28,229 nt of DNA from a virus. The stretch is taken from the IMG/VR virus record IMGVR_UViG_3300028176_000016, positions 1 to 28,229 of that record; one strand, written 5' to 3'. Made by a program: the position numbers and the translations under genes. The notes beneath the pieces are model-generated. The model made no database searches, had not been told where the DNA came from, and saw only the letters and a program-made list of their open reading frames with translations. Below are positions 3,064 through 27,692 of this stretch, in pieces; the first letter of the stretch is position 1; every line of letters begins with the position of its first letter.

Positions 3064-4236
3064 TTATGATTCGCTCAGGGCTTCCCAATCGGCATAGGGT
3101 GAATCCGGGGTAACCGAGTAATTATCCAGGGCTTCGAGTATCATGGGCAGCCGCAGTTCTTTTTCGGGGTCGAACTCCAAGTCGCCAGAGGCCTTCAGCC
3201 GGCACTTGTGGATGTGGCACTTACCCGACAGCCCGACATCCGGAGCAAAATCCATCCGGGCCGCACCCACCTGGTAGTCCGCGGCACCGATGGGAAATTT
3301 GAGGCTCTCCCAAGTGACATGCGTAAAGCTCACCATGACCTCTTCACCGTCCTCCAGAAATCCGCCGGCCAATCGCCCGACCCGCCCCGAAATCAGCCCG
3401 CCGGTGACCTGGCCCGGGTCCAGGATATAATCGGTGTTCTGCACCGCGTTCTGCCGGATACAGTTGATAGTGGCCGGGGTAGTCCAGGGCGTGGTGGCCG
3501 TGATCTGAATCCAATACATCGCTTCGGAACTGTTGACGATGGTGGTTTCCCAGTCAGCCGGCAGATCCCAGTTCATCTTGCCATCCGCGGCCAGGGCCGC
3601 CGCCGCGCCGCCCAGGTTGGCTACCGCAGACCAGGCGCTGCCATCCCAATATTTCACCACCACGGCGCCATAGACGCCTTCCACGGCGAAGTTGAAATAG
3701 GCCTCGGTGAACGGGGTCAACTTGCCCAGGTAGAGAATATCGTCGGCCTCTTTGAGCGTAGCAAAGGCCGTTCCCGCCAGGGTGTCAGCCTCAGCGGAAT
3801 GATCCAGGTAGGCCAGGGCCGACTTGTCATAAAGGAAGCACTTGTCCAGGAACTGGCGCACTGTCACCGCCGAGACCCCGTATTTCCCCAGGGAGGAGAG
3901 CAGCGTGCCGCTCAGGGTGGCTTTCTGGTCCACAATGGCGTCGGTGCTTTCGCCAACCACGGTAATTGCGCCGCCCTTCATAAAAGGCCGCAGGTTGTCC
4001 ACCACCGGGTCAATCAGGGTAAATTCCAGCGTGAACTCTTCCCGCTTGGAAATGATATCGAGGAGCCGCAGCTTCCCGGAACGTTGCGAGTCAATCCGCA
4101 GCTCATCGGTTTTTTGTTTAATCTTCACGCTATTGGGGACGATTTCTCCCAAGTCGCGCATCCCGGCACCGGTATCAAAATTGAGAATGATACCACCGGG
4201 GACGGTGATATTGTCTAAGCTCGGCGGGGTTGGCAT
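3064..4236 (-). CDS. Major tail tube protein with inserted domain
   Basis: This 390-residue protein starts behind AGGAGGG. It lies directly upstream of the gpG/gpGT chaperones, the normal place of the tail tube subunit, which stacks in rings around the tape measure protein. The first ~120 and last ~110 residues look like one tube fold, with a shared style in segments such as 'KLRLLDIISKREEFTLEF' and 'LSGKCHIHKCRLKASGDLEF'. Between about residues 165 and 265 lies a Trp/Ala/Thr-rich insert ('KYWDGSAWSAV', 'MYWIQITATTPW') resembling a beta-sandwich surface domain. Such insertions decorate the tail exterior in other siphophages. Tube identity is inferred from order, length and the double tube-like pattern. 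The insert fold is a guess. Confidence 0.75.
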   Translation of the reverse strand: MPTPPSLDNITVPGGIILNFDTGAGMRDLGEIVPNSVKIKQKTDELRIDSQRSGKLRLLDIISKREEFTLEFTLIDPVVDNLRPFMKGGAITVVGESTDAIVDQKATLSGTLLSSLGKYGVSAVTVRQFLDKCFLYDKSALAYLDHSAEADTLAGTAFATLKEADDILYLGKLTPFTEAYFNFAVEGVYGAVVVKYWDGSAWSAVANLGGAAAALAADGKMNWDLPADWETTIVNSSEAMYWIQITATTPWTTPATINCIRQNAVQNTDYILDPGQVTGGLISGRVGRLAGGFLEDGEEVMVSFTHVTWESLKFPIGAADYQVGAARMDFAPDVGLSGKCHIHKCRLKASGDLEFDPEKELRLPMILEALDNYSVTPDSPYADWEALSES

Positions 4237-4248
4237 GGTAAAGCCCTC

Positions 4249-4710
4249 CTAAGTTAAAATGGTGGTAAAGGGGTTATTAAGGGCGTGACCGTAGGTGACC
4301 CGGTAACGCAACACGAGTTCGCCAAACGCCTCGTTACCAATAGCCGGGCGCTTTAGTTCCTCTTCAACTTTTTTTACTGGGCTGGCCAGGACTGAGGGGC
4401 CAAACATCACCATGTAAACCTGGGCGGCGATCTCATCCGCCTGGTCATAAAAGGTTTGGAAGCCATGATCCTTGTCTGCCTTGAGCCTGATAAAAGCCAC
4501 CATTTCAAGAGATAGAATCCCTTCGGCATGGCGGTTACCTCGTTCCCGGGTAAGGGGGTCGGCCTCATAGAAAAATAGCTGCGACTGCTTGATCTTCTCC
4601 AAGTCAGTTCCTATCGGGTCACGCCGGTGCACCTTGTCAACTCCGGCGACCCCGGCTGCCAGGGCCGTTTCCAAGGATTTCATGAACTGCGTCTGGATGG
4701 TGTCTGCCAT
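4249..4710 (-). CDS. Tail terminator / tail completion protein
   Basis: This 153-residue protein lies between the gpZ-like protein and the major tail protein, where siphophages encode the tail terminator (gpU-like) that caps the tube and joins it to the head. It is an alpha/beta protein with phrases such as 'LEMVAFIRLKADKDHGFQTF' followed by a helix ('YDQADEIAAQVYMVMF') and a C-terminal strand ending in a conserved-looking 'YRVTYGHALNNPF'. That is the usual rhythm of these small proteins. It follows the gpZ-like stop after a few bases and has only a weak ribosome site, so it may be translated by coupling. Assignment depends mainly on synteny. Confidence 0.6.
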   Translation of the reverse strand: MADTIQTQFMKSLETALAAGVAGVDKVHRRDPIGTDLEKIKQSQLFFYEADPLTRERGNRHAEGILSLEMVAFIRLKADKDHGFQTFYDQADEIAAQVYMVMFGPSVLASPVKKVEEELKRPAIGNEAFGELVLRYRVTYGHALNNPFTTILT

Positions 4711-8207: not shown

Positions 8208-9082
8208 TTCATCTCCTCACATTTGGCCGTGACCAATCCGATATTAGCTATCCCCAGCCTGACTATCTGCCGGATTTGCTTCATATAGCAGGCCCGCAGT
8301 TCCGAGCCGAACCCGGTATCGGCTTTCACGGTGAGCTGGTTATCGTGGACCCGGCGCCGCATCAATATCTCTTGGCCGCACCGATGACCGATTTCGGCGG
8401 CTGGCAGACGCTTTAAAAATTCGGTATCCGCCGCGCACCGCCAGGGCATGAACCCGCCGACCGCTAAAAACTTTTTCCGCCCGATGAGAAAGACCCCGCA
8501 GGCTTGCTTGACATTGCCCTTAGAATCCTCGCCCATCATGTAGACCGCGACATCAAACCGGCCCTGATTTAGTTCTAATAAGGCGGTGACCATCCCCGGC
8601 TCAGCCGTGTCATCAGCATCGAAAAAGAGGATGAGGTCATGCTTCGCCTTGGCCGCCAGGCTGTTCTTGACCAGGTACGGGCCATAATTCTGATCGAACC
8701 AAAAGACCCGCAGATTTTCATAGTCCCGCAATATTTTGAGCGCCCGGCGCCTGGAAGACTTACAGGCGTCAATCCCCAGGAGGATTTCGTACTTGGCTCC
8801 CCCGGCGAAGTGACTTTGAGCCACCAGGGAGTCAAGGCATTCCTGGAGAAAATCAGCCGCCTTCCATGCCGGGATGACAATAGAGACCCCTTCCGGCTTT
8901 TGAGGGACCGGAAGGGGGGTAGGGGAGGGAGTGACAACGGGGCTTACCAGGGTCAGTTTCCAAGCATTATCCCGCACTAGGCCGGGTGATGGATTCTCTA
9001 AGAGGTCCCCGCCCCCCAAAACACGCTGGCATGGGAGATGGATCGTATAGCCTGGCTTCACCTGGTAAACCGTTGCTTCCAT
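8204..9082 (-). CDS. Family 2 glycosyltransferase with N-terminal phage-type domain
   Basis: This 292-residue protein starts behind AGGAGAA. Residues ~65-200 are a GT2 domain: 'GVSIVIPAWKAADFLQECL' (first strand and helix), 'EILLGIDACKSSRR', and the DxD-like 'LILFFDADDTAEPGM'. The first ~48 residues ('YQVKPGYTIHLPCQRVLGGG' and 'NAWKLTLV') do not belong to GT2. They resemble small phage structural proteins of the type V-x-P-G-Y-x-I ... G-G-D-x-L, joined through a Pro/Ser/Thr-rich linker ('VTPSPTPLPVPQKP'). It follows the decoration-like gene directly, so the fusion may bring the enzyme to a virion protein. The enzyme class is well supported. The N-terminal role is inference. Confidence 0.85.
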   Translation of the reverse strand: MEATVYQVKPGYTIHLPCQRVLGGGDLLENPSPGLVRDNAWKLTLVSPVVTPSPTPLPVPQKPEGVSIVIPAWKAADFLQECLDSLVAQSHFAGGAKYEILLGIDACKSSRRRALKILRDYENLRVFWFDQNYGPYLVKNSLAAKAKHDLILFFDADDTAEPGMVTALLELNQGRFDVAVYMMGEDSKGNVKQACGVFLIGRKKFLAVGGFMPWRCAADTEFLKRLPAAEIGHRCGQEILMRRRVHDNQLTVKADTGFGSELRACYMKQIRQIVRLGIANIGLVTAKCEEMN

Positions 9083-9094
9083 GTTTCTCCTGTT

Positions 9095-9511
9095 TTAGAC
9101 GCTGAACTCTACGTCGTTGACCTGAGTAACCGGGTTAATCTGTGCCTGGGAAAGAACCGCCACCGCGCTCATGGGGACGGTCTGGTTAGCCACAACGTTA
9201 ATGGCCCGGATATAGCGTTTCCGGCCCCGCAGATTGATACGGCCAACGTAGGTCAGGGCGCCAGTGCCCGCAACCTTCTGTGCAAAATCCGCGTCGGTAA
9301 TGTCCGCATACCCGGACCCCAAAGCATTGGACTCCTCGATGTGAACGTCAACAGTCCCGTTGCTGGGGATAACCCCCAGAGCCAGAATAATCAGGGCCTC
9401 GTCATAGCCCCGGCAGTCAATTCCGGTGCCGGTAGCGGTCCCGGCAGTCTGGGCAACGGGGGTAAGAAGTACCTTGGCAACCATTTCCTGAGAAGCAGTT
9501 CCTTTCGGCAT
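9095..9511 (-). CDS. Capsid-adjacent beta-sandwich protein (putative decoration/head protein)
   Basis: This 138-residue protein starts behind AAGGAGAA and directly follows the capsid gene. It has a pattern common in proteins encoded next to HK97-type capsids: 'GIDCRGYDEALIILALGV', then 'GTVDVHIEESNALGSGYADI', then a tract ending 'RKRYIRAINVV' and a final strand. This reads as a beta-sandwich that could decorate the capsid or form part of the head-tail interface. No enzyme motif is visible. The strong translation site suggests high expression. The precise role is unknown. Confidence 0.65.
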   Translation of the reverse strand: MPKGTASQEMVAKVLLTPVAQTAGTATGTGIDCRGYDEALIILALGVIPSNGTVDVHIEESNALGSGYADITDADFAQKVAGTGALTYVGRINLRGRKRYIRAINVVANQTVPMSAVAVLSQAQINPVTQVNDVEFSV

Positions 9512-15890: not shown

Positions 15891-17695
15891 GCCGCCTCCT
15901 GCGCCCGCACCGGGGCCACCTGGCCATCCGATATCCACCAAACCGCGAGCTCCGGGATGGGGGAGGGGTCGGCGTGGTCACTGGTGGCGAAGCAAAGGAT
16001 CGTGTCAAAGTCCTGGCGAATAGCCAGGAGGAAATCGATCAGATTGGCTCTGTTCAGGGGGTCGAGAATGTCGGCTTCGTCGATCATCAGGAGGCGGGAG
16101 CCGGCCAGGGTAGCCAGCACGAATTGAAACGCGATCCCTGCCCGATACCTGGCGGACTTCGAAAGCAGGGCGTACGGAGTGGTCCCCCGGCACACCTCCA
16201 GATCTTGCGTGAGACGCAGGGGTTCATGTTCATCGATATCCGGGAATAAATACCCGGATGCAAAGGCAAGCCGTTCATTGACCGGCCCCAGGGCCTCAGC
16301 GATGAGCTGAGAGGGGATACCGTCCGGAGCCAGGGCCTTGGCCAGGGCATCGTAAAGGGCAATCTCCTTTTCGGCCTGGGCGATCTTGGCTTGGGCCGCG
16401 TCCGCCGCATCCTTCTTGCGCCAGAACTCCCGTACCGCGTCCAGGAGTTCGTATCCGGTTTTCATGCGGAGGTCCAGGGCGGTGATCTGATCATCGATGG
16501 TGGCGGTGTCCTGGGCCTGCACCTGAGCTTCCTTGATCTTGGCGATCTTGTCGGCCAGGACCTGGCGCTGTTTGCAGTAGTCGTCATAGGTGACCTGGGC
16601 CAGCCGGGCCGCGGCAAGGTCGGTTTCGATGAGAGTGACTTCCTTTTCCTGCTCTTGGAGGTCGGCCTTGGCCCTAGCTATAACTGCCGGGACGATGCCT
16701 GTTGGTATAGTGCCCTTGACGGCTTCCTTGCCGGCGCTGGGGCACCCGATGTTGAAAGCCGGACATAGGGCCGGGAAGTTCTGCGGGTCCTGTCCTTCGG
16801 TCATGGCGCCCACATCCCTTTGCAATGCCTCCAGGATACCCCGGTTAATTTCCAGGGCCTTGACGAAATCCTCCACCGGGCGGTCGGGGTCCGGGGGGTC
16901 CGGGGGGGATGCTTCCAGGGAGACGAGGGCCGCTTCCAATTCCGGGAGCTTGTCAACCTTGGCTTCTACCTTGCCGCGGTTGCGCTGCAACTTATCCCGT
17001 TCGGCCCGGAGAGCCGACAGCCCGGCTTCCACGTCCGCCGTCTGGATGTCGGGGAGGATACGGAGCACCCCGCCGATGGTGGCCTTGGGTTCGGGTTCTT
17101 CTGCTGCGAATTCCTTGACGATCCGTTTGGCCACGATCCGGCGATTGATGGCTTCGGTTTCGGCGGCGGCAAAGCCTTTTTCAATAGCCACTTTGGCGAG
17201 GTCGTTTATGGGGCCAACCGTGTGCTCTTCAAATTTCACTTCTCCCAAGGCGCTTGATAGTCTGATAGCCAAATCGCTGCGCGTCGGTGAGAGCCCCGGC
17301 AACAGCCGAAACAGCACCTCACGCCGGGCCTTGTCCTCCAGGGAGAGGAAGTGAAGGGGGTCCGCCAGGATGGACAGCATGACCGCATCTTCGGGGATAG
17401 GGCCGGTGACACTAGCCGGTGTCTTAGGCGTCTTCTTGCGGGTCGTGGTGGTCTTGTCGGCCCAAGTGATCGTGACCTCCGCTGTCTTGGCCCCCTCGTG
17501 GATGAAAGCCGCCTGTTGTTCGTGGGTCTTGAGTCCCCGGGCCTGGCCGGTGAGCGCCCAAGAAATTGAATCCCTCAAAGAAGATTTTCCCGCCTCATTA
17601 GGACCCGCACAAAGATGGATGGGTGCTCCTGACAAATCCCATTTCACCGATTCTATGGCAAGAAAATTTTTGACAGAAAGATGCTGTATTTTCAT
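15887..17695 (-). CDS. SMC/Rad50/RecF-like AAA ATPase
   Basis: The 602-residue product starts at the ATG at 17695 behind GGAGG. The upstream extension overlaps an HNH relic and is rejected. It begins 'MKIQHLSVKNFLAIESVKW', the standard start of RecF/SbcC-like ATPases, with Walker A 'GPNEAGKSS' at 31-39. The C-terminal half carries a signature-like region (~505-520, 'LLSKSARYRAGIAFQF') and Walker B 'LLMIDEAD' at 535-542. Between them lie long Lys/Glu/Ala-rich coiled-coil segments with a short central Cys pair ('LCPAFNIGCP') that is not a true CxxC zinc hook. The family tethers or clamps DNA for nucleases. The PD-(D/E)XK nuclease next to it is a likely partner in recombination or repair. Confidence 0.88.
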   Translation of the reverse strand: MKIQHLSVKNFLAIESVKWDLSGAPIHLCAGPNEAGKSSLRDSISWALTGQARGLKTHEQQAAFIHEGAKTAEVTITWADKTTTTRKKTPKTPASVTGPIPEDAVMLSILADPLHFLSLEDKARREVLFRLLPGLSPTRSDLAIRLSSALGEVKFEEHTVGPINDLAKVAIEKGFAAAETEAINRRIVAKRIVKEFAAEEPEPKATIGGVLRILPDIQTADVEAGLSALRAERDKLQRNRGKVEAKVDKLPELEAALVSLEASPPDPPDPDRPVEDFVKALEINRGILEALQRDVGAMTEGQDPQNFPALCPAFNIGCPSAGKEAVKGTIPTGIVPAVIARAKADLQEQEKEVTLIETDLAAARLAQVTYDDYCKQRQVLADKIAKIKEAQVQAQDTATIDDQITALDLRMKTGYELLDAVREFWRKKDAADAAQAKIAQAEKEIALYDALAKALAPDGIPSQLIAEALGPVNERLAFASGYLFPDIDEHEPLRLTQDLEVCRGTTPYALLSKSARYRAGIAFQFVLATLAGSRLLMIDEADILDPLNRANLIDFLLAIRQDFDTILCFATSDHADPSPIPELAVWWISDGQVAPVRAQEAA

Positions 17696-17705
17696 GATAC
17701 CTCCG

Positions 17706-17849
17706 TTATTGTTTGCCATTGACCCGATAAAATCTCCTGCATTCAGGGTGGCAAGCTTGACCTTGTTTGCCGATGGACAGTTGAATAGGGTCATCATGTA
17801 GTTTGCAGATAGTACATTTTCGCCAGTTCGCGTGTCCACATGCATTTAA
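17706..17849 (-). pseudogene. Relic of an HNH homing endonuclease (C-terminal zinc-binding tail)
   Basis: In this frame the 47 residues before the stop read 'LNACGHANWRKCTICKLHDD' and end 'CHPECRRFYRVNGKQ'. They align without gaps around the cysteines with the tail of the intact HNH protein at 27029-27619 ('LACGNKSWRKCFVCGKYDDP ... HRSCVNEY'). Shared are ACG, WRKC, the second Cys, DDP and a later Cys. No ATG, GTG or TTG start exists between the nuclease stop at 17872 and the homology, and the HNH core is absent. The segment is less GC-rich than its neighbours and fills the gap before the Rad50-like gene. A short live zinc-finger protein with an unseen start is the alternative. Confidence 0.65.
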
Positions 17850-17871
17850 CGCATATCTTGGCTGCCATGAT

Positions 17872-19014
17872 TCATCCCTTAACCTTGCTGAACCCGATCT
17901 TCTCAGTCTGCTTACTCGGAGCCCCGGCCAGGATCGCCTCAAGCAGGTCCTTCCTCTTGAGCTTCTTAAGGCCACGCTCCAAGCTGGTCTTTGTCAGATT
18001 CAATAGCCCCCATACCTGGTCAACTTCCAGGCCCTCGCCCAGCAGCGTCTCGGTAATCTCCCGTGGGTCCAGGTCGTAGGATGTGCTGAGGGAGGTGCCG
18101 TAGATTTGATCGTTTACCCTTACCGGCCCGTTTGCCTGCACGTATTCCTTGAGACGCCCGGTGATCATCTTGTCCGTCTCCCGCACGGCCAGGAGCAGGG
18201 TCGCCGCTTTCTCGGCCTGTTCCCGGGTAGCCGGGGCCATGACCTCCACTGGGATGAGGGCCGACTGCATAACCGGGCAATGGCTTTGCACTCCACACCA
18301 TGAGCAGTAAGACCCGGGTGTAGGGTCATACTTTTTATCCGATTCGATGGTGGCCACCAGTTTTTCCAGTTCGGCCGGCACGGTGTCCAGGTCTTCCGGG
18401 AGCAGCAAGATTTCACGCTCGGCGCCGTATCTGAGAAAGTGGAGCCGTAGCAGAATTTCTTGAGCATCCGGATAGAGCGCCCGGCGCACTGCCCACCCGT
18501 AAATCCGGGTCTGGAGGTTCTTGTCGATGTCCATGACCGCCCTGTTGGATTTCCAATCTTGCACCACGACTAAGCCGCCCTGCCGGTAGGTGAGGTCCAC
18601 CACGGCCCGGAAAAAGGCGTCCTTGGCGAACCACTCCACCGGCTCCCATGCCCGGTTAAAGGCGAGTTGCTTTTCAACCCCAGGGGCTGCCATGGGCGGC
18701 AAGATAAAGTTTTTCACGAACCGGGGCCATACCTCCAGCACGTCCGCCGGGGCCTCCTTGGGGGTGATCGCCTGGGCATAGGTCCAGTCGGTTTGTAGGC
18801 CAACGTCAATGAGCCGGAGCAGGTATTTCGCCGCCAGTTCGTGAAGCATCTGGCCGATGATAAGCGGTTCGCTGGTGGCCCGGGGGATTTTGTCGATGCG
18901 GATGAGCTTATAGGCGTAAGGGCACCCCCCATGCACGTCGCCGCCGTGGTACATCTCCAAAGCTGAGTGAGAATATCCGATTTTTTTACCCATAGTTTGG
19001 CTCTCCTGGCTCAT
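17872..19014 (-). CDS. PD-(D/E)XK nuclease, Cas4/RecB-like with Fe-S cysteines
   Basis: The 380-residue product starts behind GGAGAG. Residues of the RecB/Cas4-type active site are visible: H58 in 'IGQMLHELAAKY', D140 in 'FFRAVVDLTYR', D153 and K155 in 'VVVQDWKSNR', and Q168 in 'LQTRIYGWAV'. A Cys at 31 ('GGCPYAYKL') and three at 237, 240 and 246 ('YCSWCGVQSHCPV') match the split Fe-S cluster pattern of AddB/Cas4-like nucleases. It probably resects double-stranded DNA ends. The Rad50-like ATPase downstream is a plausible partner, as in phage recombination modules. The C-terminal ~100 residues are an extra, mostly helical part. No cas genes are near, so this is not a CRISPR function. Confidence 0.88.
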   Translation of the reverse strand: MSQESQTMGKKIGYSHSALEMYHGGDVHGGCPYAYKLIRIDKIPRATSEPLIIGQMLHELAAKYLLRLIDVGLQTDWTYAQAITPKEAPADVLEVWPRFVKNFILPPMAAPGVEKQLAFNRAWEPVEWFAKDAFFRAVVDLTYRQGGLVVVQDWKSNRAVMDIDKNLQTRIYGWAVRRALYPDAQEILLRLHFLRYGAEREILLLPEDLDTVPAELEKLVATIESDKKYDPTPGSYCSWCGVQSHCPVMQSALIPVEVMAPATREQAEKAATLLLAVRETDKMITGRLKEYVQANGPVRVNDQIYGTSLSTSYDLDPREITETLLGEGLEVDQVWGLLNLTKTSLERGLKKLKRKDLLEAILAGAPSKQTEKIGFSKVKG

Positions 19015-23146: not shown

Positions 23147-24103
23147 TTAAACGACTAGGCACATATCGAACTCAGGGTAAATCAGTCCTTCGCTACTAGG
23201 AATCCTACACAAATATTCTGATTGCCATGTTTGTTCTGATACCTGCCTCTTTTTAGTTATCGCATTTTCTATTGTGTAATAGCCGTCTGCATTGACTGCC
23301 CTTCCTTGGCAATCTTCCCACAAATAACATTCAGCGCAAATTCTTCCTTCACATTTTTCTAAAACGTCGAGCAAACACCAATGATATAGCCGATACCCCC
23401 GGCTCGGGGCCTCTTCCACGATCTGCTGCATGAGGCCGTAAGTCTTGTGCATGGTGCTGTAGATGTGCGTGCTGGCCTGGTGGCCGCCCTTGGTCATGGG
23501 GGTGGATAGTGCCGCCTCGTAAATCCTGGGGTCCATCTCATCAATCTCATCGAGCTTGACTTTTTGCGGGTGAGCGCCGCGGACGCTTTTAGGAGAGGCG
23601 GTGAGCAAGTTGATGCTGGAGAAATTCTTGAGCACCATGGACCGGGTAAGCATTTCGCCGTCCTTATCAGATTTCCCCCGGCGCATTTGTTTGGCTGAGG
23701 CCAGCAGGTAGTGGAAACTCTTGTTCACCAGCCCCCAGCCATCCCCGCCCCCGGTCAAGTGCTCATACATCCGGTTGCTCTGCTCCAGGGAGCCGGCCAG
23801 AACCTGCGTAGAGCATCCTGGCTTGAATACCATGTCCAGGAAAGCTACCAACCCGCCTAACAGCGTCTTGCCGCCGCCCCGGTTAGCCCAGCAGATAGCG
23901 TTCAAAGTCCGCTCGAAAAAGGCGTCACAGAGGTATTGGGCGGGGGAGTCGTGGCCAGGGCATACGCGGGCCTGGGGGATGCTGAGGGATTCGCCTGACT
24001 TGCCCCGGAAGAGAGCCTTGACGAATAGCAGGAGTTCGGCGTCGGTGGTGAAGGGGTGCTGGCGATAGTGCTCTATCAGGCGTCGGTCATCGGCGGTGAA
24101 CAT
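23147..24103 (-). CDS. terL (ATPase half): Large terminase, ATPase domain only
   Basis: The 318-residue product has the packaging-motor ATPase elements: Walker A 'WANRGGGKTLLGG' (about 72-84), Walker B 'VKLDEIDEMD' (182-191, D185/E186) and a coupling motif 'STMHKTYG' (216-223). It ends 'GLIYPEFDMCLVV'. In normal terminases YPEFD is the last ATPase-domain motif before the linker to the nuclease domain, so the protein stops exactly at the domain border. The nuclease is a separate gene at 26551-27060. The last ~83 codons (from about 23397) are clearly more AT-rich than the rest. The ribosome site is weak (CTTGCCCC before ATG). The ATPase identity is secure. Confidence 0.92.
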   Translation of the reverse strand: MFTADDRRLIEHYRQHPFTTDAELLLFVKALFRGKSGESLSIPQARVCPGHDSPAQYLCDAFFERTLNAICWANRGGGKTLLGGLVAFLDMVFKPGCSTQVLAGSLEQSNRMYEHLTGGGDGWGLVNKSFHYLLASAKQMRRGKSDKDGEMLTRSMVLKNFSSINLLTASPKSVRGAHPQKVKLDEIDEMDPRIYEAALSTPMTKGGHQASTHIYSTMHKTYGLMQQIVEEAPSRGYRLYHWCLLDVLEKCEGRICAECYLWEDCQGRAVNADGYYTIENAITKKRQVSEQTWQSEYLCRIPSSEGLIYPEFDMCLVV

Positions 24104-24111
24104 GGGGCAAG

Positions 24112-24453
24112 CTATCCGGTCTCAGCCGGTTCCTTCTTTTCCTTCGGCAGCTTCATTTTCAATCCGAATCCGACCAGGCCCTCAGCCCGGAAATACCTCT
24201 CTACCGAAGGTGCCAGGCCGCCATCGGGGGTGATGATCCCGTGGGCCTTGAGCCGGTCGAAGCCGGCGAGGGCAACTCCGGCGGGCACGTCGGCCAGGTA
24301 CGCCAGGCGGGTGAAGTCGAACCGGATGGTGGCCCAGGGGTCATTGGCAGATTCCGGGGTAGTCCCCTGGACATCATCCCTCTCCACCGCGGGCCAGGCG
24401 AGCGCCAGCCGGTAGAGGGCGGGGGATGACCGGATCAGGGCTATTTTGCGCAT
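24112..24453 (-). CDS. Winged-helix-like protein upstream of terminase ATPase
   Basis: The 113-residue protein begins 'MRKIALIRSSPALYRLALAW' and has a middle part 'FDFTRLAYLADVPAGVALAG' followed by 'FDRLKAHGIITPDGGLAPSV', the rhythm of a winged helix: a helix-turn-helix (A-x-L-A-x-V-P-x-G-V) then a short wing with D-G-G. It could bind DNA or assist packaging, as its stop lies eight bases before the terminase ATPase ATG. Its own ATG lies within the last codons of the AT-rich methyltransferase-like gene. The fold is inferred by eye. Confidence 0.65.
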   Translation of the reverse strand: MRKIALIRSSPALYRLALAWPAVERDDVQGTTPESANDPWATIRFDFTRLAYLADVPAGVALAGFDRLKAHGIITPDGGLAPSVERYFRAEGLVGFGLKMKLPKEKKEPAETG

Positions 24454-25247
24454 GGGGCAAAACCTTTAATATTGTTTATGCGCATAGTGCGCCAGGCTTT
24501 TAGTGCGGCCAGTTTACATCCAATATCCCTGTCTTTAATTACATTTGTTGGGCCTAAAGGATAGTATTTAAAAATAGCTGAATCCATGATAGTCTTTTTA
24601 TTTTTACTCTTATAGCTGTTATAAATAGGCACCATATTTTTAACCATGGCATCAATAACTATATCTTCAATGAAATACGTTATATTCGAACCGTGATATT
24701 GTTGAAGCATCCATTGATAATAATGCCAAGTTAAATGAGTAAAGAATTGGAAGCCACGGTGTTTAAATAAATTATTAATCCCCACCTCTTCTGTAAATTG
24801 TTTACTATATAAGCCACCAACTTGATCTCTTCCTCTCATTAAATTAATATATATTACGGTTGGCGACGCTAAACCAGTGGAATCAAAGCAGGACGTCATA
24901 AAATCTTTAGCTACTTTTCTGGTTAATCCTGAACATAAATCAGCTATAATAATATCTATTGGTGGGTTACCGGTCCAATTTCTAATAAAATCTACTATAT
25001 CAATGCATATAGCCGGTCTTTTTAATTGCTTTATTTTGTTTACTTTCATAACATCTGCATCTATGGCTATTAAATTGCAATCTTTAAACCCCTTTTGTAT
25101 TGCTATCTCTCTGTCTATATCATCTGGGCCTGCCAAATATGCTACTATTAATTCTTGTGGCTTTTTATGCGACATGCGAATTATTTGATTCCATGCCCAC
25201 CTACGATGATTGTTCTTTGTGCCGTATTTATAACAATCGAGACCCAT
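24441..25247 (-). CDS. Rossmann-fold, methyltransferase-like protein (AT-rich cassette)
   Basis: The 268-residue protein is much more AT-rich than most flanking genes. Strand ends expected of a class I methyltransferase are visible: 'LIVAYLAGPDDIDREIAIQK' (motif I region), 'NLIAIDADVMKVNKIKQ' (acidic end of strand 2), 'AICIDIVDFI' and 'IDIIIADLCSGLTRKV' (motif IV region). The usual GxGxG is replaced by AGPDD, so SAM binding is not certain. It follows the 53-aa gene by three bases and its end overlaps the winged-helix gene start. ParB-domain proteins in phages are often followed by DNA methyltransferases, so a DNA-modifying role is possible. No NPPY or PC catalytic motif of DNA methylases is seen. 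Confidence 0.55.
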   Translation of the reverse strand: MGLDCYKYGTKNNHRRWAWNQIIRMSHKKPQELIVAYLAGPDDIDREIAIQKGFKDCNLIAIDADVMKVNKIKQLKRPAICIDIVDFIRNWTGNPPIDIIIADLCSGLTRKVAKDFMTSCFDSTGLASPTVIYINLMRGRDQVGGLYSKQFTEEVGINNLFKHRGFQFFTHLTWHYYQWMLQQYHGSNITYFIEDIVIDAMVKNMVPIYNSYKSKNKKTIMDSAIFKYYPLGPTNVIKDRDIGCKLAALKAWRTMRINNIKGFAPCAK

Positions 25248-26550: not shown

Positions 26551-27060
26551 TTAGCGCCCCGTCCACCCCTTAAGGAAATATCGAACTGCATCACAGCTAT
26601 GATGCGCCCCGATCCCCGCCTGGTGCTCCCGGTAGTCCCGCCATTCCTGGAAAAGCCGCTTCGGACAATGCCTAGAAAAAACCAGCCCCGATTCGCCCCG
26701 GGTCATCTGCGCTGCCTTGAGCCATTGCTTGACGAGTTCATGTCCGGCGTCTACCCGGCCCGGTGCCCCCAGGATATCTACGCCGAAAATTTGGGAGTAG
26801 GCGCGTAAGGCCTCCGGCTTTGAGACATCCCCCCATCCCCCCACCGGCTGCGCCAGGGGACCGTACCCCCGCTCCTGGTGGATGGCCAGGGCTATCTTTG
26901 CGTTTTCTTCATTCGTCCGGGCCGCCTGGAAATGGGCGAACAGGACCGTCAACCGCTCGCTGTCGGGGCTGGCCTGGACCCAGACGGTCGCGTTATTCCA
27001 AAAACCAAAATCAATGGCGAGATATAAATCATGGCCTGGCACATACTTGTCGTCTTTCAT
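26551..27060 (-). CDS. terL (nuclease half): Large terminase, nuclease domain only (5' end restored by HNH element)
   Basis: The 169-residue product has the RNase H-like terminase nuclease motifs: 'LYLAIDFGFWNNATVWV' with catalytic D17, an acidic residue in 'VGGWGDVSKPEALRAY' (D78) and the terminal 'HHSCDAVRYFLKGW' (D157), which matches the (N)DHAxDALRY motif of the family. It cuts concatemeric DNA at packaging start and end. Codons 1-23 are AT-rich and come with the HNH element. From codon 24 the sequence is GC-rich resident DNA. The ATG lies 30 bases upstream of the HNH stop, so translation is coupled. The ATPase half is a separate gene about 2.4 kb downstream. A weak AGGA ribosome site is present. 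Confidence 0.88.
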   Translation of the reverse strand: MKDDKYVPGHDLYLAIDFGFWNNATVWVQASPDSERLTVLFAHFQAARTNEENAKIALAIHQERGYGPLAQPVGGWGDVSKPEALRAYSQIFGVDILGAPGRVDAGHELVKQWLKAAQMTRGESGLVFSRHCPKRLFQEWRDYREHQAGIGAHHSCDAVRYFLKGWTGR

Positions 27061-27619
27061 TGGCATTTTTCCTATTGTATTCATTGACGCATGACCTATG
27101 CCAAGCGTTATGATCCCTGGTATACATGTTATTTGGATCATCATACTTCCCGCAAACAAAGCATTTGCGCCACGATTTGTTTCCACATGCCAAAAAAGCT
27201 CTTAATCTTTTTTCAATAAATCTGTGATATTTTTCATCCTGACAAATAACATGATTTCCTTTACTGTTGTCGTTTTTTATGCCATTGGCATGATGAACAA
27301 CCGCTCCCGGGGGCAAAGGTTTCCCCAATGCTTTCTCAGCGATTAAGATATGCTCATAAGCATAGCCATTGATGCTGTGCGGATGCGTTTTGTTCATTAA
27401 TCTTGGGTATCTATTTTGATGAATCCTTCCACCAGCCCACTTCCAATTATTTGTTCCCCTGGAATGATGGCCATGAATATATTTATTCGGGACGCCTTTG
27501 CTGGCTCCTTTTCTGGTGCTTGATGCCAATTTAGTTTTGCCGCCACAACCACAGGCGCAGTCGCCTGAGGGAATTAATTTGACAGGAATCCCATTTATGA
27601 TAATTTCGGAATAGCTCAT
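27029..27619 (-). CDS. HNH homing endonuclease inserted in terminase nuclease gene
   Basis: The 196-residue product starts at ATG 27619 behind GAGGAGG. It contains 'GDCACGCGGKTKLASSTRKG', a frequent N-terminal cysteine motif in phage HNH enzymes, then 'YAYEHILIAEKALGKPLPPG', the HNH core 'AVVHHANGIKNDNSKGNHVI' (H109/H110, N118) with H132, and a zinc-binding tail (C145, C153, C156, C177; 'SWRKCFVCGKYDDPNN'). The gene is AT-rich, has its own consensus promoter, and lies between the broken and the restored 5' end of the terminase nuclease gene. Its last ten codons overlap the restored start in another frame. This layout is that of a mobile, intronless homing gene. Confidence 0.93.
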   Translation of the reverse strand: MSYSEIIINGIPVKLIPSGDCACGCGGKTKLASSTRKGASKGVPNKYIHGHHSRGTNNWKWAGGRIHQNRYPRLMNKTHPHSINGYAYEHILIAEKALGKPLPPGAVVHHANGIKNDNSKGNHVICQDEKYHRFIEKRLRAFLACGNKSWRKCFVCGKYDDPNNMYTRDHNAWHRSCVNEYNRKNANERRQVCARP

Positions 27620-27692
27620 GACCGATCCTCCTCGATAGGATGGTTTTGGGTTAGGGCCTTGCGGGTGTCTCACCACCTTCAAGGCTCGTTTC

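What the first reader, a model, noticed from the sequence alone, without database searches (positions are those of the whole stretch)
17706..17849. Degraded HNH tail in front of the Rad50-like gene
Forty-seven residues align with the zinc-binding tail of the intact HNH protein 10 kb away, but the nuclease core and start are gone. This is a footprint of an earlier homing gene at the start of another essential-looking gene, the same kind of location as the live one.
Basis: partly seen in the sequence, partly recalled or inferred. Interest (0 to 1): 0.6.

Follow-up and report, generated by a model that had tools for sequence, protein, structure and literature searches.

The report
Remnant of a phage homing-type gene
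Between two DNA-repair-type genes of this phage lies the leftover of a parasitic HNH endonuclease gene whose catalytic middle has been deleted; an intact gene occupies the same spot in a related prophage, so this is an ordinary fossil of a known kind of mobile gene.

Summary
Confirmed. The minus-strand frame ending at 17706 encodes the C-terminal zinc-binding module of an HNH_3-type endonuclease. It lies in the 176-nt gap between the PD-(D/E)XK gene (stop 17872) and the Rad50-like gene (ATG 17695). A profile of the module scores it at E about 1e-16, within the range of intact family members. Of 56 distinct module-bearing ORFs collected, 52 have the HNH core in the same frame and none is a short gene with its own start. 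In L133 the two genes overlap with nothing between. One correction: the start is probably not gone. An ATG with a Shine-Dalgarno-like sequence just after the PD stop opens MAAKI, like the family's 'M..KIP' N-terminus, one base out of frame with the tail. The likeliest history is one internal deletion of about 0.38 kb. The tail probably persisted because HNH 3' ends in this group carry the next gene's ribosome-binding site. A second tail-only case is in L108. This is a known kind of event (T4 I-TevIII; truncated Skunavirus HNH genes).

The parts
17706..17852 (-). 3' remnant of an HNH endonuclease gene: C-terminal zinc-binding module ALNACGHANWRKCTICKLHDDPIQLSIGKQGQACHPECRRFYRVNGKQ, with its stop codon
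17854..17868 (-). Probable 5' remnant of the same HNH gene: ATG GCA GCC AAG ATA (MAAKI), preceded by AGGG at 17878-17875, one base out of frame with the tail
   Evidence: sequence; HNH N-termini M..KIP.G.CQCGCG in L128, L086, L119 and L005; inference
17853..17854 (-). Inferred deletion junction between the 5' and 3' remnants (about 128 codons missing, judged by spacing in L128)
   Evidence: inference
17794..17868 (-). Out-of-frame residual ORF from the retained ATG (MAAKICVKCMWTRELAKMYYLQTT, then stop)
17700..17704 (-). Shine-Dalgarno GGAGG for the Rad50-like gene, directly after the remnant's stop codon
15887..17695 (-). Rad50/SbcC-like ATPase gene; conserved start at 17695 (MKI), not the upstream ATG at 17845 that opens the longest ORF
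17872..19014 (-). PD-(D/E)XK nuclease gene directly upstream of the remnant
27029..27631 (-). Intact HNH_3-type endonuclease with the same tail, overlapping the start of the terminase nuclease-half gene; same family as the remnant

Best explanation
A free-standing HNH endonuclease gene once sat directly after the stop codon of the PD-(D/E)XK gene and in front of the Rad50-like gene. An internal deletion of about 380 nt removed everything from codon 6 to the start of the C-terminal zinc-binding module and joined the two ends out of frame, so no HNH protein is made. The 3' end stayed intact, probably because it abuts the ribosome-binding site of the downstream gene. Shown: the tail's identity, loss of the core, an intact HNH at this junction in a relative, and an empty junction in another. 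Inferred: the single internal deletion, the retained 5' codons, and selection on the downstream ribosome-binding site. Homing as the route of arrival is assumed from knowledge of such phage genes and was not tested.
For: Tail similarity far above chance. The module is otherwise joined to an HNH core in 52 of 56 distinct ORFs; the others are this one, L108, L085 (core in an overlapping other frame) and a weak 24-bit match in L041. L128 has an intact HNH_3 gene 10 nt after the PD stop and upstream of a 68% identical Rad50. In L133 the PD stop overlaps the Rad50 start. Other relatives carry unrelated genes there (L003, L009, L010, L011), so the junction accepts inserts. GC is 0.456 in the remnant, 0.586 and 0.603 in the flanking genes, and 0.42-0.48 in intact HNH genes; no 160-nt stretch of the two flanking genes is below that value. 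MAAKI at the expected place, with a Shine-Dalgarno-like sequence, matches HNH N-termini. In all six intact cases checked, the HNH 3' end overlaps the start of the next gene.
Against: The 5' match is only five residues. The only other copy is a record identical but for one base in 11.8 kb, so there is no independent look at the junction. In L128 small ORFs lie between the HNH and Rad50, so its HNH is not directly in front of Rad50. The tail has not decayed at all, which a dead sequence eventually should.
Confidence: 0.88

Rival explanations
1. The tail is a living mini-protein: a DNA-binding zinc module kept after loss of the nuclease core and expressed by +1 frameshifting from the retained start or from the PD-(D/E)XK gene.
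For: Frame fully open with all conserved residues kept. A second, independent tail-only module sits in a comparable position in L108.
Against: No start codon in frame within the gap and no recognisable slippery site in either case; the gene ends of PD-(D/E)XK relatives carry no such extension. A recent deletion explains the intact frame equally well. None of the 56 tail-bearing ORFs is a short gene with its own start.
Confidence: 0.05
2. A sub-variant of the remnant reading: the HNH gene was lost by recombination or several steps that left only its 3' end; the ATG and MAAKI are a chance match or belong to an unrelated small ORF.
For: L108 shows a tail-only remnant with no 5' piece. Five residues are weak evidence. 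The region is highly mosaic.
Against: The ATG, the Shine-Dalgarno-like sequence, the K-I pair and the placement right after the PD stop all fit HNH 5' ends.
Confidence: 0.25
3. Chance resemblance or a generic zinc-finger fragment unrelated to HNH genes.
For: The frame is short (47 codons) and cysteine motifs are common.
Against: 0 of 2000 shuffles reach the score; profile E about 1e-16; an intact HNH is present at the same junction in L128.
Confidence: 0.01

Closest known systems
I-TevIII in phage T4 (nrdB intron; functional orthologue in RB3), as reviewed in PMC2988022
   Same: An HNH endonuclease gene made inactive by a large deletion, with an intact orthologue at the same site in a related phage
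   Different: I-TevIII lies in a group I intron; this one is free-standing between genes, is of the HNH_3/C-terminal zinc-module group, and is out of frame
Truncated free-standing HNH genes of lactococcal Skunavirus phages (PMC12724721: 56 of 268 HNH genes, most at one site in the replication module)
   Same: Partially deleted leftovers of HNH genes at recurrent sites among replication and recombination genes
   Different: Different phages and hosts, and an HNH subfamily with a C-terminal zinc module that recurs here as the retained part
Pfam HNH_3 (PF13392) endonucleases with the C-terminal ACG...WRKC..C..YDDP...H..C module (window 27029-27631; L128; L118)
   Same: The remnant is the C-terminal module of this group
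   Different: The catalytic HNH core is absent from the remnant

Membership tests
HNH_3-type phage endonuclease with C-terminal zinc module (as a remnant) | C-terminal module ACG...WRKC..C..(Y)DDP...H..C | tested here: met
   62.1 bits, within the leave-one-out range of intact members
HNH_3-type phage endonuclease with C-terminal zinc module (as a remnant) | Catalytic HNH core (PF13392) | tested here: not met
   No core in any frame near 17706-17871; hence a remnant, not a functional member
HNH_3-type phage endonuclease with C-terminal zinc module (as a remnant) | Start codon and N-terminus (M..KIP.G.CQCGCG) | tested here: inconclusive
   MAAKI at 17868-17854 with AGGG upstream, out of frame
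Free-standing homing endonuclease gene | Sporadic presence between conserved genes, with an occupied and an empty allele | tested here: met
   L128 occupied, L133 empty, other relatives with different inserts
Free-standing homing endonuclease gene | Site-specific cleavage of the empty allele and biased inheritance in mixed infection | not testable with these tools
   Needs biochemistry and crosses
Short free-standing zinc-finger protein family | Conserved short ORF with its own start, without HNH core | tested here: not met
   Of 56 distinct tail-bearing ORFs none is of this form

The most novel reading that the evidence does not exclude
The zinc-binding tails of these HNH genes are kept repeatedly after the nuclease is lost, because the tail is still expressed by recoding or because its DNA or RNA regulates the next recombination gene. 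Window 17706-17852 and L108 4239-4430 would be two independent examples.
Probability: 0.05. Interest if true: 0.5.

Novelty: new member of a known kind. Interest (0 to 1): 0.22.

Why it matters
It is a clean three-state series (empty, occupied, decayed) for a mobile HNH gene at one junction between a PD-(D/E)XK and a Rad50-like gene in phages and prophages of uncultured, mostly Deltaproteobacterial, hosts. It suggests a simple reason why such genes decay asymmetrically: their 3' ends carry the next gene's ribosome-binding site. It also warns annotators that the longest ORF for the Rad50-like gene (start 17845) runs through the remnant and that the real start is 17695. The kind of event itself is known.

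Tried and rejected
Phage nucleotide search: no relatives in INPHARED. tblastn of the tail alone: nothing significant. A first tail pattern with a spacing error matched only unrelated frames and was corrected. Pfam and PHROGs do not recognise the tail. Origin by duplication of the window's own live HNH was rejected: the tails are only 35-38% identical, less than to HNHs of relatives (48%). RF2-like or slippery-site frameshifting from PD-(D/E)XK was considered by eye and rejected: no usable slip site and no such extension in relatives. The longest ORF of the Rad50-like gene (652 aa, ATG 17845) was rejected as the true start because all relatives begin at MKI. No structure prediction was run, since fold is not in question. 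The two flanking records L173 and L174 start too close to Rad50 to show the junction. A whole-stretch DNA alignment of the window gap with L128 matched the tail but did not resolve the short 5' piece.

Full report
OBSERVATION. On the minus strand the gap between the PD-(D/E)XK gene (stop TGA 17874-17872) and the Rad50-like gene (ATG 17695) holds an open frame ending in TAA at 17708-17706. It reads ALNACGHANWRKCTICKLHDDPIQLSIGKQGQACHPECRRFYRVNGKQ. Against the HNH protein at 27029-27631 (-) it scores 81, where 2000 shuffles average 27.5 and peak at 54; no other frame of the window exceeds 40. At the DNA level the two copies are barely alignable, so this is not a recent duplicate of the live gene.

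FAMILY. A corrected degenerate pattern for CG...WRKC..C found 84 stretches in IMG/VR. About half of these are true HNH endonucleases in which the module is the C-terminal tail. A profile of 26 such tails scores the remnant at 61-63 bits, E about 1e-16. With 45 intact tails the remnant scores 62.1, inside the leave-one-out range of intact tails (58.3-83.3). All columns invariant in the alignment are kept. After a further scan there were 56 distinct tail-bearing ORFs, of which 52 have the HNH core in the same frame. The other four are the window's own, L108, L085 (core in an overlapping other frame: a frameshifted gene) and a weak 24-bit match in L041. No short free-standing gene with its own start was seen. 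The scans require WRKC, so divergent tails are undersampled.

RELATED LOCI. Viral relatives L003, L009, L010 and L011 (Rad50 52-74% identical) have the PD-(D/E)XK and Rad50-like genes separated by unrelated accessory genes and no HNH tail. The genome scan with the PD-(D/E)XK alignment found seven loci, mostly in Deltaproteobacterial MAGs (Syntrophales, Syntrophobacterales), which hints at the hosts. L128 carries two intact HNH genes (HNH_3). One lies directly upstream of PD-(D/E)XK. The other starts 10 nt after its stop codon (8622-9227), followed by small ORFs and then a Rad50 that is 68% identical to the window's. In L133 the PD stop codon overlaps the GTG of Rad50: the empty state. L118 and L119 have HNH genes directly in front of the Gp3-like gene, and Pseudomonas phage P54 has a tail-less relative directly in front of its PD-(D/E)XK gene. 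The group thus occurs at the front of several different replication, recombination and packaging genes.

ANATOMY OF THE REMNANT. Intact HNH genes here often begin M..(K/E/T)IP.G.CQCGCG. In the window, 3 nt after the PD stop, AGGG-ATGAATC-ATG GCA GCC AAG ATA reads MAAKI, then continues into the tail DNA one base out of frame. The simplest reading is that the first five codons and the tail are the two ends of one gene joined by an internal deletion. Judged from L128 (128 codons between the Ile and the Ala of the tail) about 380 nt are missing. This is inference from five residues plus position. Low GC (0.456 against 0.586 and 0.603 in the flanks and 0.42-0.48 in intact HNH genes) agrees with a foreign insert.

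WHY THE TAIL SURVIVED. In all six intact cases inspected (window live gene, L118, L119, two in L128, L005) the HNH 3' end overlaps the start codon of the next gene. Losing the 3' end would remove the next gene's ribosome-binding site. In the window the GGAGG of the Rad50-like gene directly follows the remnant's stop. In L108 a start-less tail abuts the next ATG (TTATAATG). This is a plausible, untested reason for asymmetric decay.

ALTERNATIVES. Expression of the tail by recoding is not excluded, but nothing supports it beyond the intact frame. The near-identical record (one difference in 11.8 kb) is not independent evidence on the frame.

KNOWN KIND. T4 I-TevIII is an HNH endonuclease inactivated by a large deletion, with a functional orthologue in RB3 (PMC2988022). 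In Skunavirus phages 56 of 268 HNH genes are partially deleted remnants, mostly at one site in the replication module (PMC12724721). The present case is a new member of that kind.

Noticed in passing
window 23147-24103 (-) and 26551-27063 (-): The large terminase is encoded in two separate genes in reversed order: the nuclease half lies about 2.5 kb upstream of the ATPase half, with HTH, ParB-like and other ORFs between. The same split and order occur in relatives (G002, G005, G006, G008, G009), so it is a conserved arrangement, not an assembly error.
   Followed up: partly
L108:4239-4430: Second, independent start-less HNH tail, directly after the stop of a 378-aa coiled-coil gene and overlapping the next ATG, upstream of a DUF3799 (PD-(D/E)XK-like) gene.
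   Followed up: partly
L085:539-1191 (-): HNH gene with core and tail in different overlapping frames, apparently a frameshifted pseudogene; the same contig carries another HNH ORF at 4078-4467.
   Followed up: no
L128:6895-7491 and 8622-9227: Two different HNH genes of the same family flank one PD-(D/E)XK gene, directly before and directly after it.
   Followed up: partly
L003:3130-3490 and L009:3490-3800: Long GC-rich degenerate short repeats (GGCAAGGC-type) between the PD-(D/E)XK and Rad50-like genes; not examined.
   Followed up: no
window 24441-25247 (-): Gene of 268 aa with GC 0.34 in a 0.55 GC phage, no Pfam match and only a weak PHROG match (E 0.22); probably a recent import.
   Followed up: no
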